Below, in pieces: positions 35,429 to 40,755 of a stretch of DNA of 64,000 nucleotides. Under the pieces are notes generated by a model, which did no database searches, was not told where the DNA came from, and saw nothing but the letters and a program-made list of their open reading frames with translations. The translations under genes were made by a program, and so were the position numbers. Within the stretch, counting starts at the first letter, position 1; the number at the start of each line of letters is the position of its first letter. This DNA comes from Patulibacter sp. (GTDB taxonomy: Bacteria > Actinomycetota > Thermoleophilia > Solirubrobacterales > Solirubrobacteraceae): NCBI RefSeq assembly GCF_030655195.1, contig NZ_JAURWA010000176.1, positions 1-64,000 on the forward strand. Reading direction: 5' to 3'.

Positions 35429-35504
35429 CGCGGCCGCGGACACGGGCCACGGTCCGGTCGCCGGAGCTTCGCCCCCTCTTACCTCCCGCGAAGGTGGGCC
35501 TCTA

Positions 35505-35510
35505 TAGGCT
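35505..35510 (+). promoter_or_regulatory. -10 of the HTH-membrane regulator gene, leaderless spacing
   Basis: TAGGCT, 8 bases before ATG 35519; an overlapping TATAGG at 35503-35508 is an alternative. Confidence 0.5.
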
Positions 35511-35518
35511 CAGGTCCG

Positions 35519-36766
35519 ATGTCCCGTTTGCAGGAGCTTCACCCGGACCAGCAGGCCGTCCTCCAGCTCGTGCTGCGGCGGCGTATGCCCTACGCCGACC
35601 TCGCCGGTCTGCTCGACCTGACGCCCGAGGGCGTCCGGGAGCGTGCCCTGGACGCGATCGACGGCCTCGCGCCCGAGGACGTCGAGGGACTGGCCCTCGA
35701 GGACCGCGACCGGATCGCCGACCACCTGCTGGGGCAGGATGCGGGCGCCGACCGCGAGGCGACCGCCGCCCTGATCGCCGAGCACGTGCCGGCCACGACC
35801 TGGGCGACCACCGTCGCCGTCGAGCTGGAGCCGCTCGGCGGCCCGGCCGCCGAGCTCGGCGCCGCCGTCGCAGGCACGCCCGGCGCGATCGAGCCCGGGA
35901 CCCCCGGGTCCGCCGTCGCCGGCGGGGCCGCCGCGGCGATCGCGGGGGACGCGACCGCGGCCCCCGACACCGGTGCGACCGGTGACGGCGCACCCGTGGC
36001 CGGTGCCGCCCCGGAGGCGGTCGGTGCCGACGCCGCGCCCGCCTACCAGGCCCCCGCCACGGGCCGACCGGTCCACGGTGCCCCGACGAGCACGCCCGCG
36101 GCGACCGCCGACGCGGCACCCCGCACCCCGCGCCGCGGCGCCGCAGGCGGCCGTCGCACTTCGCTCGCCGGTCGGCCCCCGAAGGTGCTGGCCGGTGCCG
36201 GCGCGGCCGCGCTGGTCGTCCTGCTCCTCGTCCTCTGGATCGCCGGCGCGTTCGGCGGCGGCTCGGGCGACGACGGAGACACGCAGGCGAGCGCCCCGCC
36301 CGCCACGACGACCGCCGCCGCCGACGCGACGCCGACCGCCGCCCAGCGGGCCGCGGCCGCGCAGTTCGTCGCCGCCCTCCCGCAGAGCATCAGCTTCCGT
36401 CCCACGTCGAGCACGCCGGCGGCGTACCGGCGCGTGACGGGGACGGCCAAGCCGGCGATCAGCCAGGCCAACGCCGCCAGCCCCGTCCTGGCCCTCACGA
36501 TCCGCGGCCTGCCCGCGCCGACGAGCTCGCGGAGCTACTTCGCGTGGGCCGACAAGAACGGCGCCGACCCGATCTTCCTCGGTCAGCTGACCGACCGCAG
36601 CGGCGCCGAGCTGCCGTTCCAGGGCCTGGACCTGAAGACCCGTCAGGCCGCCGTCGTCGATCCGACGACGTACTCCCGCGTGCGGATCACGCTCGAGACG
36701 AAGCCGCAGCCGAGCCGCCCGGGCCCGACGATCATCGTCGGCACGATCACCCCCCGCGCCAGCTAG
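35519..36766 (+). CDS. Membrane regulator: cytoplasmic HTH, one TM helix, extracytoplasmic RskA-like domain (415 aa)
   Basis: The N-terminus 'LHPDQQAVLQLVLRRRMPYADLAGLLDLTPEGVRERALDAI' (residues 5-45) is a sigma-region-4-like helix-turn-helix. A long Ala/Gly/Pro/Thr linker follows (~100-215), then one membrane helix ('VLAGAGAAALVVLLLVLWIAGAF', ~222-245). The outer C-terminal domain (~285-415), with 'SYFAWADKNGADPIFLGQ' and 'SRVRITLETKPQPSRPGPTIIVGTI', resembles the extracytoplasmic half of RskA-type anti-sigma factors. The usual zinc anti-sigma motif (H-x3-C-x2-C) is absent. It would sense outside conditions and act directly on DNA or RNA polymerase. Start ATG 35519 is supported by its -10. 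Confidence 0.75.
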   Translation: MSRLQELHPDQQAVLQLVLRRRMPYADLAGLLDLTPEGVRERALDAIDGLAPEDVEGLALEDRDRIADHLLGQDAGADREATAALIAEHVPATTWATTVAVELEPLGGPAAELGAAVAGTPGAIEPGTPGSAVAGGAAAAIAGDATAAPDTGATGDGAPVAGAAPEAVGADAAPAYQAPATGRPVHGAPTSTPAATADAAPRTPRRGAAGGRRTSLAGRPPKVLAGAGAAALVVLLLVLWIAGAFGGGSGDDGDTQASAPPATTTAAADATPTAAQRAAAAQFVAALPQSISFRPTSSTPAAYRRVTGTAKPAISQANAASPVLALTIRGLPAPTSSRSYFAWADKNGADPIFLGQLTDRSGAELPFQGLDLKTRQAAVVDPTTYSRVRITLETKPQPSRPGPTIIVGTITPRAS

Positions 36767-37257: not shown

Positions 37258-37800
37258 TCAGTCCTCGTAGGAGATCAGGGAGAACACGTCGTGCGGCGCC
37301 AGCGCGGCGCGGCCGCCGAGGAACGCCAGCTCCGCGAGGAACGAGCAGCCGACGACCTGTCCGCCCAGACGTTCCACGAGCGCGCAGAGCGCGACCGCCG
37401 TGCCGCCGGTGGCGAGCAGGTCGTCGTGCACGAGGACCCGCGTGCCCGAGGGCAGCAGGTCCGCGTGGACGTGCAGCTCGTCCGTCCCGTACTCCAGCTC
37501 GTAGGTCACCGAGAGCGTCGCCCGCGGCAGCTTGTCGGGCTTGCGCGCCAGGAGGAACCCGGCACCCAGCTCGCGCGCGACCGCGGGCCCGAGCAGGAAG
37601 CCGCGGGCCTCCGCGCCGATGACGGCCTGCACGCCGAGCTCCCGTGCGGCGGCCGTGAGGCGGTCCACGGCGGCGGCGAGGGCCTCGGGATGCGCCAGCA
37701 CGGGCGAGATGTCCCGGAACGTGATCCCGGGCTGAGGATGGTCCGGGATGTCGACGACGTGGGACTTCAGGTCGACGTGGTCCGTGGCGGCGCGGGTCAC
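37258..37800 (-). CDS. apt: Adenine phosphoribosyltransferase (180 aa)
   Basis: The PRPP-binding motif 'VLVHDDLLATGGTAVAL' (residues ~120-136) and the N-terminal 'DIPDHPQPGITFRDISPVL' hallmark of Apt are present; 'VIGAEARGFLLGPAVARELGAGFLLARKPDKLP' is the flexible loop region. It converts adenine and PRPP to AMP. GTG 37800 overlaps the MerR stop by 4 bases (GTGA). In many actinobacteria apt lies beside relA and secD/secF; here it sits in a regulatory operon instead. Confidence 0.92.
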   Translation of the reverse strand: MTRAATDHVDLKSHVVDIPDHPQPGITFRDISPVLAHPEALAAAVDRLTAAARELGVQAVIGAEARGFLLGPAVARELGAGFLLARKPDKLPRATLSVTYELEYGTDELHVHADLLPSGTRVLVHDDLLATGGTAVALCALVERLGGQVVGCSFLAELAFLGGRAALAPHDVFSLISYED

Positions 37801-38645
37801 GGGACCAAGCGTCGCAGGTCGCGCACGAGCAGCAGGTGCTTGAGCCGCATCGTCGTCGCCGCCAGGGTCTCGAGCGCCTCGACCGCCTCGGACCGGCGCT
37901 CGGCGCTGCGCGAGCGCAGGGAGGGCCCGAGCAGCTGCTCGAGGAGCGCCCCCTCGCGGTCGGCGGAGCTGCGCAGCACCCGCAGGTGCCGGCCGCCGAC
38001 CCCGTAGTGGGAGAGCTCGACGGCGGCGCGCACGATCTCGCGCTCGTCGTCGTCGAAGACGATCGCGCCGTCCCGCGTGGTCCCCTGCACGACGCCGAAG
38101 TCGCGCAGCTCCTTGACCAGCGCCGGCGTGGCGCGCGTGTCGTCGCAGAGCTGCTCGAGCGTGTGCAGCGCGGTCCCGCCGCCGCGGAGGGCGATCGGGC
38201 CGGTGCGGTGCACGGCGTGGTCGTGGTCGGGCTCGTCGGGCTCCCCCGGTCCGGCGACGCGCGGCGCGTCCTGCCCGCGACCGGCGGCGAGCTCCTGACG
38301 GATCACCCGCAGCGGCAGGAACTCGTCGCGCTGGAGCCGCAGGATCGTGCGCAGCCGGTCGACGTCGTCCGTGCTGAACAGGCGGTAGCCGCCCGACGTG
38401 CGTCGCGGTTGGAGGAGCTTCTGCTCCTCGAGGTAGCGGATCTTCGAGATCGAGATGTCCGGGAACTCGCCGACCAGGAGCTTGCAGACCTGGCCGATCG
38501 TCAGCGGGCGGCCCGTGCGGACGGGCGGCGGCGCGGCGGCCGGCGCAGGCACCGCCGCCGGCGGCGCGACGGGCACCGCAGCGGATTCCGGCGGCGGACC
38601 GGCCGGCGGGTCCCCCGCGCGCTCCGTCCCCGGCCCGTCGCTCAC
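37797..38645 (-). CDS. FtsR-like MerR-family regulator (282 aa)
   Basis: MerR-type winged helix at residues ~47-105: 'LTIGQVCKLLVGEFPDISISKIRYLEEQKLLQPRRTSGGYRLFSTDDVDRLRTILRLQRD' (read in parts), followed by 'FLPLRVIRQEL'. The longer C-terminal region (~150-282) has no metal Cys. The layout and position beside an FHA gene match Rv1828 of Mycobacterium and FtsR of Corynebacterium, which control ftsZ. Direct ftsZ control here is inferred. GTG 38645 lies 7 bases after the FHA stop; the protein ends inside the apt start. The Pro/Ala-rich N-terminal ~45 residues are variable. Confidence 0.87.
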   Translation of the reverse strand: MSDGPGTERAGDPPAGPPPESAAVPVAPPAAVPAPAAAPPPVRTGRPLTIGQVCKLLVGEFPDISISKIRYLEEQKLLQPRRTSGGYRLFSTDDVDRLRTILRLQRDEFLPLRVIRQELAAGRGQDAPRVAGPGEPDEPDHDHAVHRTGPIALRGGGTALHTLEQLCDDTRATPALVKELRDFGVVQGTTRDGAIVFDDDEREIVRAAVELSHYGVGGRHLRVLRSSADREGALLEQLLGPSLRSRSAERRSEAVEALETLAATTMRLKHLLLVRDLRRLVP

Positions 38646-38652
38646 CCGGTCC

Positions 38653-39123
38653 TCAGCGACCGAGGAACGTGAGCTTGAACTTGCCGACCTGGACCTCGTC
38701 GCCGTCGTGCAGCAGCGCGCTGTCGATCCGGCCCCGGTTGACGTACGTGCCGTTGAGCGAGCCGAGGTCGTCGATGTGCCAGCCGTCGCCCCGGGCGACG
38801 ACGAGCGCGTGGTCGCGGGAGACGGTGACGTCGTCGAGGAACATGTCGCTCTCGGGACGGCGGCCGATCGTGATGCGGTCGCCCTGGAGCGGCACGCTCT
38901 CGCCCTCGCGGCCCCCACCGGCACGGACGACCAGCGCGGCGACGCCCTGCTCCTGCAGCGCGCCGATGTCGACCGCGGCGATCTCGCCGGAGTCCTGCAG
39001 GTGGTAGGTGGCCGTGGTCGGCTCGTTGACGCCGGCGACGTCCGCCAGGTAGGCCCCGCACTTGGGACAGAAGTTCGCCGCGGTCCCCGCGACGAACCCG
39101 CACTCGGGGCAGTGGACCGCCAT
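38653..39123 (-). CDS. Zinc-ribbon plus FHA domain protein, GarA-like (156 aa)
   Basis: An N-terminal zinc ribbon 'CPECG...CPKCG' (Cys5, 8, 19, 22) and a C-terminal FHA domain at ~75-150 with 'ITIGRRPESDMFLDDVTVSRDHALVV' and 'LGSLNGTYVNRGRI', the phosphothreonine-binding Arg, Ser and Asn intact. Two adjacent threonines (Thr36, Thr37) in 'NEPTTATY' resemble the kinase site of mycobacterial GarA (E-T-T-S). GarA-type proteins switch carbon metabolism when phosphorylated. Here it lies between the RsiG-like gene (TGATG overlap) and the FtsR-like gene, so it may report serine/threonine kinase state to division or development. Confidence 0.9.
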   Translation of the reverse strand: MAVHCPECGFVAGTAANFCPKCGAYLADVAGVNEPTTATYHLQDSGEIAAVDIGALQEQGVAALVVRAGGGREGESVPLQGDRITIGRRPESDMFLDDVTVSRDHALVVARGDGWHIDDLGSLNGTYVNRGRIDSALLHDGDEVQVGKFKLTFLGR

Positions 39124-39437
39124 CAGGCCGGCGCGTCCCCGCCCTCGTCCTCGTCGCGGGCGACGACGGGTGCCTCGTCGGGCACGGGACGCAGGCCGCC
39201 GACGCGGCCGGAGAGGATCTCGGTGAGGCGGTCGACGTCCGACCCGTGGATGACGGTGCCGCCCTCGTCGTGGCGCAGCCGCAGGCGGCTGACGAGCTCG
39301 GCGCGGAGGATGTCGATCTGGCCGTGGAGGATCCGCCGGCGATAGCTGACCTCGGTCTCCTCGGCCGTCAGGCGGTCGATGATCGCCTTGAGCTCTTCGT
39401 CCGGGAGGCTGCCGAGATCGGGAAAGGTGTCGTCCAT
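39123..39437 (-). CDS. RsiG-like c-di-GMP-responsive anti-sigma factor, single-motif type (104 aa)
   Basis: After 'LPDEELKAIIDRL', the helix 'EETEVSYRRRILHGQIDIL' carries the c-di-GMP motif of RsiG, E-x3-S-x2-R-x3-Q-x3-D, as Glu27, Ser31, Arg34, His38 and Asp42, with His in place of Gln. Streptomyces RsiG has two copies on two helices and holds WhiG when c-di-GMP is bound; Rubrobacter RsiG has one copy and works as a homodimer, as this protein would. No WhiG-type sigma gene is in the window. Start ATG 39437 is preceded by a -10 TATGCT and a hairpin GGCGCCC/GGGCGCC. First gene of the FHA-ftsR-like-apt operon. Confidence 0.78.
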   Translation of the reverse strand: MDDTFPDLGSLPDEELKAIIDRLTAEETEVSYRRRILHGQIDILRAELVSRLRLRHDEGGTVIHGSDVDRLTEILSGRVGGLRPVPDEAPVVARDEDEGGDAPA

Positions 39438-39535: not shown

Positions 39536-40378
39536 TCAGGCGCCGGCGGCGGGACCCGGAGCCGGACCGTCGCCGGCCCCCGCGTCGGCGGCTGCGGCCG
39601 CGCGCTCTCGCAGCTGGCGACGGCCGTCGCGCTCGTACCTGATGGTCGCCATGATCGCCATCCCCACCCCGACCACCAGCGCGACCTTCGCGGGCCAGCC
39701 GACCCCGACCAGCGCCGCGAAGAGGCCCGCCATCAGCGGCCAGACGGCCAGGCGGCCCCACCAGTTGACCCCGAGCCGGACGTCCTTCTTCAGCGCGCGT
39801 CGCGCGGCGTCCGTCGTGTACAGCTCGCGGACGACGAGGACCGCGAGCGCCTCGCGGGGCAACAGGTCGAAGTGCCAGCAGACGATGCCGCCGGCCACCA
39901 CCAGCGCCCGGTCGGTGATCGGGTCCAGCAGCGTGCCGAACCGGCTGTACTGGCCCGTCAGCCGGGCGAGGAAGCCGTCGAGGTAGTCCGACGCGGCGAT
40001 CAGGGCGAACAGCAGCGCCGGTCCGAGCCGCGTGCCGTCGTCGCTCGACAGCGCGAGCACGAGGAAGACGGGAATCAGGGCCAGCCGGAGCAGCCCGACG
40101 ACGTTGGGGATCGTCCAGACCCGCAGGGGCTGGCCCGCCAGGGTCTCGATCGGCGGCGGCCCCGACCGGTCGATGCCGAAGAGCCGGTAGACGGTCATGC
40201 GGGCGGGCTCGGTGAGCTCGCGGGTGCGCTCGCGGACGTGCTCCGTCCGCTCCATCGCCCGATCGCGCACCTGGTCGGTGCGCTCGCGGACCTGCTCCGT
40301 CCGCTCCCGCGTGCGCTCCCGAACCTGGTCGCGGCGCTCGCGGCCCTTTGCGCGGGCGCGGTCGGCCCGCTGCCGCAT
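39536..40378 (-). CDS. CDP-alcohol phosphatidyltransferase with a coiled-coil N-terminus (280 aa)
   Basis: The catalytic motif D-G-x2-A-R-x8-G-x3-D-x3-D is complete in 'DYLDGFLARLTGQYSRFGTLLDPITDR' (read in parts). Five to six membrane helices follow 'WTIPNVVGLLRLALIPVFLVL', so it makes a phospholipid such as phosphatidylglycerophosphate from CDP-diacylglycerol. Ahead of it sits a charged repeat of R-E-R-T-x-Q-V heptads (residues ~8-60), unusual for this family. The open frame continues to GTG 40696, and base composition supports coding up to ~40600, so the start is uncertain; ATG 40378 is the first firm Met. It lies next to the RsiG-FHA-ftsR-like operon, as pgsA2 does near garA in Mycobacterium. 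Confidence 0.8.
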   Translation of the reverse strand: MRQRADRARAKGRERRDQVRERTRERTEQVRERTDQVRDRAMERTEHVRERTRELTEPARMTVYRLFGIDRSGPPPIETLAGQPLRVWTIPNVVGLLRLALIPVFLVLALSSDDGTRLGPALLFALIAASDYLDGFLARLTGQYSRFGTLLDPITDRALVVAGGIVCWHFDLLPREALAVLVVRELYTTDAARRALKKDVRLGVNWWGRLAVWPLMAGLFAALVGVGWPAKVALVVGVGMAIMATIRYERDGRRQLRERAAAAADAGAGDGPAPGPAAGA

Positions 40379-40755
40379 GCGGTCGGACGGGCGGTCGACG
40401 GGATCGCCGCCGGGGCCGTCGACGCCGTCGTCCGCCGGCGTGGTCCCGTCGTCCGGCCGGCCGCCGGTCGAGGGGCTCAGGACGCCCGCTCCGCCGCTGC
40501 GGCCGAGGCCGTCCGCGCGGACGGCGCGGGACCGCGGCGACCCGTCGGCGACCGCGGGGCGGTCGGGCGACCGGAGCCCGGCGCGATCTTGGGCGGCGAC
40601 GTCATCGACCGGGAATCTACGGGACGGCGGGACGCCGGGCGTCCGGGTGAGGCCCGTCGCGCAGGCCCGGGAGGCGGCCTCTGTAGGTTGGATCACAGCG
40701 GGCTTGCCGCACGGCGGCCCGCGCCACCGTTCCGCCCCCTTCCGAGGAGCCCCCT

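What the first reader, a model, noticed from the sequence alone, without database searches (positions are those of the whole stretch)
39123..39437. One-motif RsiG-like c-di-GMP anti-sigma factor at the head of an FHA-FtsR operon
Seen: Glu27, Ser31, Arg34, His38 and Asp42 sit at the spacing of E-x3-S-x2-R-x3-Q-x3-D, with His for Gln; only one copy is present. Known: Streptomyces RsiG holds WhiG with c-di-GMP using two copies, and Rubrobacter RsiG uses one copy as a homodimer. Inference: this protein would dimerise around c-di-GMP and hold a sigma factor encoded elsewhere. Its position ahead of the FHA and FtsR-like genes ties c-di-GMP, kinase and division signals in one transcript.
Basis: partly seen in the sequence, partly recalled or inferred. 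Interest (0 to 1): 0.8.

Follow-up and report, generated by a model that had tools for sequence, protein, structure and literature searches.

The report
Single-motif RsiG beside FHA and FtsR
The gene encodes a known type of small protein expected to hold a sigma factor inactive when the messenger c-di-GMP is plentiful; the new part is that such genes sit beside the same two regulator genes across many related bacteria.

Summary
39123-39437(-) encodes a 104-residue RsiG (PF22802, 72.4 bits, cut-off 27) with Glu27, Ser31, Arg34, His38 and Asp42 at the stated spacing, one copy. The main idea is published: Schumacher et al. 2021 (PMC8325347) described homodimeric single-motif RsiGs, including one from Patulibacter medicamentivorans, whose RsiG is 82% identical to this one, and a histidine form that binds c-di-GMP. 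A WhiG gene lies on another contig. The gene is a new member of a known kind.

Three results go beyond the papers I found. (1) The FHA-FtsR neighbourhood is widespread: an FHA gene follows rsiG in 80 of 80 named loci and 53 of 54 single-motif loci outside the class, against 0 of 26 two-motif loci there. (2) In 8 of 8 class genomes without rsiG where an FtsR gene was found, FHA-FtsR remains and whiG is also missing; RsiG tracks WhiG, not its neighbours, which weakens the proposed obligatory link to kinase and division signals. (3) Two-motif RsiGs occur inside this class at the same locus, probably from separate duplications. Binding and transcription were not measured.

The parts
39123..39437 (-). 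rsiG: 104-residue single-motif anti-sigma factor
   Evidence: PF22802 E 2.4e-20; PDB RsiG matches; only PF22802 match in the genome
39312..39359 (-). [quoted passage not shown]
   Evidence: translation; conservation; role of each residue taken from PMC8325347 section 10
38653..39123 (-). zinc-ribbon plus FHA protein, 156 aa, OdhI/GarA-like
   Evidence: PF00498 69.4 bits; NF041660 OdhI 111.8 bits, below its cut-off of 200
37797..38645 (-). ftsR, MerR-type regulator (GTG start at 38645 is my inference)
   Evidence: NF050798 211.2 bits, cut-off 150; junction sequence
39536..40696 (-). pgsA-type CDP-alcohol phosphatidyltransferase, the gene upstream
   Evidence: PF01066 88.5 bits; a Pgs match upstream in 77 of 80 named loci
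37258..37800 (-). apt, adenine phosphoribosyltransferase; less constant downstream neighbour
   Evidence: NF002636 211.4 bits; found in 42 of 65 named loci with room

Best explanation
It is a single-motif RsiG that works as an anti-sigma factor for WhiG. Two copies pair as an antiparallel coiled coil; each gives one E-x3-S-x2-R-x3-H-x3-D motif, and together with WhiG they hold a c-di-GMP dimer. When c-di-GMP is high, WhiG (encoded on another contig) is sequestered; when it falls, WhiG is released to transcribe its genes. Shown here: family, motif, solitary copy, WhiG gene, GGDEF genes, co-occurrence with WhiG, conserved neighbourhood. Inferred from published relatives: dimerisation, c-di-GMP binding, WhiG sequestration. 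Unknown: the genes that WhiG controls here. The FHA-FtsR neighbourhood is an old arrangement that may co-express the genes, but RsiG's partner is WhiG.
For: PF22802 over cut-off and PDB RsiG matches. The P. medicamentivorans locus is 82% identical; the paper reports that RsiG of that species co-purified with WhiG and self-interacted, and that the His-form RsiG of C. woesei bound c-di-GMP (Kd 25 uM alone, 1.7 uM with WhiG). The genome has one RsiG, a WhiG over cut-off whose Lys38, Gly42 and Arg43 align with the c-di-GMP contacts Lys57, Gly61 and Arg62 of S. venezuelae WhiG, and 10 GGDEF matches over cut-off. Over 199 class genomes RsiG and WhiG occur together: 148 both, 36 neither, 8 and 7 with one only, Fisher p 7.6e-25, not corrected for kinship. 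The window model has one long helix, 13-57, mean pLDDT about 87-97 over residues 11-50. A model of a natural two-motif relative (L142) has S. venezuelae RsiG as its first two PDB matches.
Against: No binding, dimer or sigma sequestration was tested. The match of the two-motif model to RsiG is weak by E-value (0.26 and 0.70; none at or below 0.001; TM 0.45-0.53). Eight of 156 RsiG-bearing class genomes show no WhiG over cut-off. The flagellar-type promoter pattern gave 15 sites in the genome against 7 for the reversed control, none of them in the fetched stretches around the T2SSE-family ATPase genes on C111 and C65, and no flagellin was found, so no WhiG regulon was identified.
Confidence: 0.85

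Rival explanations
1. RsiG works together with its neighbours: c-di-GMP, phosphorylation of the FHA protein and FtsR control of division form one circuit, and the genes stay together for that reason.
For: FHA follows rsiG in 80 of 80 named loci and in 53 of 54 single-motif loci from 14 other families; the genes overlap or nearly touch in the window; the FHA proteins carry a zinc ribbon (79 of 79 found) and many an N-terminal Thr-Thr (48 of 79) like the phospho-acceptor region I recall for GarA/OdhI.
Against: In 8 of 8 RsiG-less class genomes with an FtsR gene found, pgsA-FHA-FtsR persists without rsiG, and whiG is missing too. Ten of 10 two-motif genomes also keep FHA-FtsR without rsiG beside it. 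Synteny can last by chance or shared expression alone.
Confidence: 0.12
2. RsiG is real but holds another sigma factor instead of, or as well as, WhiG.
For: The genome has other sigma-70-family genes (12 weaker matches). RsiG was called in 8 class genomes with no WhiG over cut-off.
Against: Co-occurrence with WhiG; c-di-GMP contact residues kept in WhiG; cognate WhiG binding reported for all five single-motif RsiGs tested in the paper.
Confidence: 0.06
3. The histidine makes this form unable to bind c-di-GMP; it is a fixed or decaying variant.
For: His replaces the Gln of the first-described motif.
Against: The paper measured c-di-GMP binding by a His-form RsiG and notes that His can make the same stacking contact. 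His is conserved.
Confidence: 0.02

Closest known systems
Single-motif RsiG of Patulibacter medicamentivorans and Conexibacter woesei (Thermoleophilia), PMC8325347
   Same: One motif, small protein; the paper reports a motif with His in C. woesei RsiG, self-interaction, and co-purification with WhiG. The P. medicamentivorans sequence fetched here is 82% identical.
   Different: Longer charged C-terminal tail in the window protein than in most relatives; otherwise nothing that sets it apart.
RsiG of Rubrobacter radiotolerans (7lq2, 7lq3, 7lq4)
   Same: Single motif; [quoted passage not shown]
   Different: Gln in place of His; the paper's main text does not mention its genomic neighbourhood (terms FHA, synteny, genomic context: 0 occurrences).
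RsiG of Streptomyces venezuelae (6pfj, 6pfv)
   Same: Same motif and anti-WhiG role.
   Different: Two motifs in one chain, monomeric; two-motif genes of this kind are not beside FHA-FtsR (0 of 26 sampled loci outside the class).
odhI/garA-ftsR cluster (PMC6683498)
   Same: FHA gene followed by ftsR, reported conserved in Actinobacteria.
   Different: That paper says the region upstream of odhI varies; its figure lists no Thermoleophilia or Rubrobacter. In single-motif lineages rsiG stands there.

Membership tests
RsiG (PF22802) | Family profile over its curated cut-off | tested here: met
   72.4 bits against 27
RsiG (PF22802) | E-x3-S-x2-R-x3-[Q/H]-x3-D motif | tested here: met
   Glu27, Ser31, Arg34, His38, Asp42
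Single-motif RsiG | Only one motif in the chain | tested here: met
   One domain in the ORF; only PF22802 match in the genome
Single-motif RsiG | Cognate WhiG in the same genome | tested here: met
   TIGR02479 274.4 bits, cut-off 189.6; E 1.8e-81 to S. venezuelae WhiG
Single-motif RsiG | Antiparallel homodimer with motifs facing one groove | not testable with these tools
   Only single chains could be modelled; a natural two-motif relative gave RsiG as the first two, weak PDB matches
Single-motif RsiG | Specific c-di-GMP binding, tighter with WhiG | not testable with these tools
   Published for relatives only
OdhI/GarA (neighbouring FHA protein) | NCBIfam OdhI model over cut-off | tested here: not met
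   111.8 bits against 200; OdhI-like, not filed as OdhI
FtsR (neighbouring MerR protein) | NF050798 over cut-off | tested here: met
   211.2 bits against 150

The most novel reading that the evidence does not exclude
Single-motif rsiG stands between pgsA-type and FHA-ftsR genes as an ancient part of one locus across deep-branching Actinomycetota. The two-motif form did not arise once: it was made again, in place, at least twice within Thermoleophilia by duplication or fusion of the local gene, apart from the Streptomyces-type duplication. In addition, RsiG-like domains are reused as a module fused to Clp N-domains and to RsbW-like ATPase domains, which would extend c-di-GMP control beyond WhiG.
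Probability: 0.6. Interest if true: 0.62.

Novelty: new member of a known kind. Interest (0 to 1): 0.42.

Why it matters
The gene itself adds one more species to a characterised switch. The surroundings matter more. A constant rsiG-FHA-ftsR order gives an ancestral address for the only sigma/anti-sigma pair that the 2021 paper calls known to be targeted by c-di-GMP, and it separates in-place duplications from relocated two-motif genes. Parallel two-motif RsiGs, some in a state where the second copy still has its own start codon, would make the paper's model (homodimer first, fused monomer later) testable in several independent cases. The joint loss of rsiG and whiG from an otherwise intact locus shows which partner RsiG follows.

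Tried and rejected
Considered and dropped: (a) that His38 is a special variant, since it is the common form here. (b) That the WhiG regulon is flagellar or type IV pili as in Rubrobacter: no flagellin; the promoter pattern at 2 mismatches gave 15 sites against 7 for the reversed control, and a scan with spacings 14-16 found none on the fetched C111 and C65 stretches or in the window and two on the C43 stretch, neither in a convincing place. T2SSE-family ATPases are present (the family is not specific to pili). Left open. (c) That twin-motif genes of family f10 (L241, L242) are a third in-class duplication: their second repeats fall with the Streptomyces-type ones (78/75) and are only 26-30% identical to the first, so I do not claim it.

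Results against the reading of repeated duplication: with 54 columns many forks are unresolved. AU tests did not reject one clade for f4 second repeats with actinobacterial second repeats (p 0.588), nor f7 with them (0.536), and f4 with f7 gave 0.088. They did reject one clade for all first repeats (0.013) and for all repeats of f4, f7 and actinobacterial twins (0.001). Two further tests did not finish. The clades were named after seeing the loci. Tree rows were chosen by hand: 80 rows, with 10 of the 26 outside twins; duplicates of the same genome were left out.

Exceptions to synteny: in family f5, genus g67, L244 (G125) has no FHA-FtsR beside its RsiG-like gene, and L243 (G083) gave no row with my profile. 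Paralogues L257-L260 are not at the locus. My first tblastn count found FHA downstream in 74 of 79 named loci with room; the profile count found 80 of 80. Loci outside the class were picked by hand from the strongest rows of a cut list. The named loci are the best 80 of 571 confirmed, hence close relatives.

WhiG calls below cut-off were read off E-values (44, matching the tally), with two borderline genomes (G101, G102) placed above.

Full report
What is there. The ORF at 39123-39437(-) starts with ATG and encodes 104 residues. Pfam RsiG matches residues 3-75 at 72.4 bits, cut-off 27. The closest solved sequences are S. venezuelae RsiG (6pfj/6pfv) and R. radiotolerans RsiG (7lq2, 7lq3, 7lq4). 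NCBIfam has no match at E 0.1. It is the only PF22802 match in the genome, which is about 95% complete in 198 contigs.

Who the host is. The nearest named locus is Patulibacter americanus (91% identity), then P. medicamentivorans (82% over residues 1-85). The window is therefore from Patulibacter or a very close relative (inference).

What is known. PMC8325347 (I saw the abstract, passages, part 1 of 4 of the Results, and sections 10, 14 and 15; no supplement) found five single-motif RsiGs among 135 homologues, including those of P. medicamentivorans and C. woesei. All five co-purified with their WhiG and self-interacted in a two-hybrid test. C. woesei RsiG, with His in the motif, bound c-di-GMP with Kd 25 uM, and 1.7 uM with WhiG. 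The R. radiotolerans structure gives each residue its role: Ser and Glu to the ribose, Gln stacking on guanine, Arg and Asp reading guanine.

The partner. TIGR02479 (FliA_WhiG) finds one match over cut-off in the genome, on contig C43 (274.4 bits), 263 aa, E 1.8e-81 to S. venezuelae WhiG. Its Lys38, Gly42 and Arg43 line up with Lys57, Gly61 and Arg62, named in the paper as c-di-GMP contacts. Ten GGDEF matches exceed the cut-off. Across 199 genomes of the class, 148 have both RsiG and WhiG, 36 neither, 8 only RsiG and 7 only WhiG (Fisher p 7.6e-25, not corrected for kinship).

The neighbourhood. In the window the order on the minus strand is pgsA type, rsiG, zinc-ribbon/FHA, ftsR, apt. rsiG and FHA share one base (TGATG), the likely ftsR GTG lies 7 bases after the FHA stop, and ftsR and apt overlap by four bases. 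Profiles built here found, in 80 named loci, FHA downstream in 80 (within 93 bases of the RsiG domain), FtsR in 79 (the miss, L125, ends 160 bases after the domain) and a Pgs match upstream in 77. In 30 further class loci FHA follows in 30 and FtsR in 28, with short flanks. Outside the class I fetched 54 single-motif loci from 14 family codes: FHA follows in 53, FtsR in 52; L286 ends 210 bases and L261 462 bases after the domain. The 26 two-motif loci outside the class have neither on the same strand within 4 kb, 0 of 26; three of these have less than 5 kb on the 3' side.

PMC6683498 (passages and section 6) reports odhI/garA-ftsR as conserved and says that the region upstream of odhI varies. 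In PMC8325347 the main text has no occurrence of FHA, synteny or genomic context. Searches for RsiG with FHA, Thermoleophilia or GarA, and for RsiG with duplication or related words, brought up no paper that reports the link (open-licence papers only). PMC13232838 (passages only) has no occurrence of FHA or Rubrobacter.

Does rsiG follow its neighbours or WhiG? Of ten RsiG-less class genomes examined, eight have an FtsR over cut-off; in all eight an FHA gene precedes it, a Pgs match precedes that, and no RsiG is found between them; the spaces between domain ends are 77-219 bases. All eight also lack WhiG over cut-off. The other two (G010, G121) have WhiG but no FtsR over cut-off, so the locus is absent from their assemblies. 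All ten two-motif genomes examined also keep FHA before FtsR. rsiG therefore comes and goes with whiG, while FHA-FtsR stays. That favours RsiG-WhiG as the working pair and makes the neighbourhood at most a matter of shared expression.

Two-motif RsiGs inside the class. The paper states that Rubrobacteria and Thermoleophilia are the only clades with single-motif RsiG, and lists only that form there. Here, three genomes of family f4 (L055, L056, L061; L142 is the named record of one) and five of family f7, genus g34 (L054, L057-L060), have two motifs in one frame, at the FHA locus (8 of 8 followed by FHA). The two repeats of f4 are 59-61% identical to each other, 69-83% to class single-motif proteins and at most 43% to repeats of 21 actinobacterial two-motif proteins, whose own repeats are 19-37% identical. 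In f7 the repeats are 44-54% identical to each other, and 52-69% to class singles. In L056 and L061 the second repeat begins with an in-frame ATG; in L055 that codon is not a start, so there the fusion is complete. A tree of 80 repeats puts f4 repeats among single-motif proteins of the same order and f7 repeats among those of f7. AU tests reject one clade for all first repeats (p 0.013) and for all twin repeats (p 0.001) but not for joined second repeats of f4 or f7 with the actinobacterial ones (0.588, 0.536). I take at least two separate in-class origins as likely, not proven.

Structure. The window protein model has one long helix (13-57) and a short one (65-75); pLDDT averages 94, 97 and 95 over residues 11-40. 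Residues 27, 31, 34, 38 and 42 lie 4, 3, 4 and 4 apart, so they fall on one face of that helix (inference). A homodimer could not be modelled. As a stand-in, the two-motif L142 protein was modelled (mean pLDDT 72.4, pTM 0.65): two long helices, 13-58 and 111-153, and its first two PDB matches of 130 are S. venezuelae RsiG chains (probability 0.87 and 0.69, E 0.26 and 0.70).

Verdict. A well-supported new member of a published family. The neighbourhood is the new part: conserved, not shown to be one circuit, and useful because it exposes repeated formation of two-motif RsiG.

Noticed in passing
L259, L354 (G077), L352 (G175); also L353, L257: RsiG-like domains at the C-terminus of proteins with a Clp N-terminal domain: both Pfam domains over cut-off in L259, L354 and L352. 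L352 and L259 keep the full motif with His. L353 looks alike but is cut by a contig end, and L257 gave RsiG only.
   Followed up: partly
L258 (G122), L349 (G055), L350 (G073), L351 (G109): RsbW-like ATPase domain (HATPase_c_2) followed by an RsiG-like stretch in four genomes of family f5. RsiG is over cut-off in L258 (33.0) and L350 (27.1), just under in L349 (25.2), and unmatched in L351, whose tail is nearly the same as that of L350. L349, L350 and L351 lack the final Asp.
   Followed up: partly
L358, L359, L360 (f7 g34), L357 (f7 g45): Compact proteins or tails with two closely spaced E-x3-S-x2-R-x3-H-x3-D-like repeats, weak RsiG matches; in L360 the repeats follow an acetoacetyl-CoA-synthetase-like frame without a stop between.
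   Followed up: no
L241, L242 (family f10): Two-motif RsiGs at the FHA-FtsR locus whose second repeats resemble the Streptomyces-type second repeat; origin unresolved.
   Followed up: partly
L243, L244 (G083, G125; family f5 g67): RsiG matches with two stretches in one frame in G125 and a 191-aa frame in G083; the G125 gene is not beside FHA-FtsR, an exception within the class.
   Followed up: partly
window 35501-36763 (+): Open frame with a weak sigma-70 region 4 match at its N-terminal side and a weak RskA_C match at its C-terminal side (27.6 bits, cut-off 29.4): possibly a fused sigma/anti-sigma-like membrane protein.
   Followed up: no
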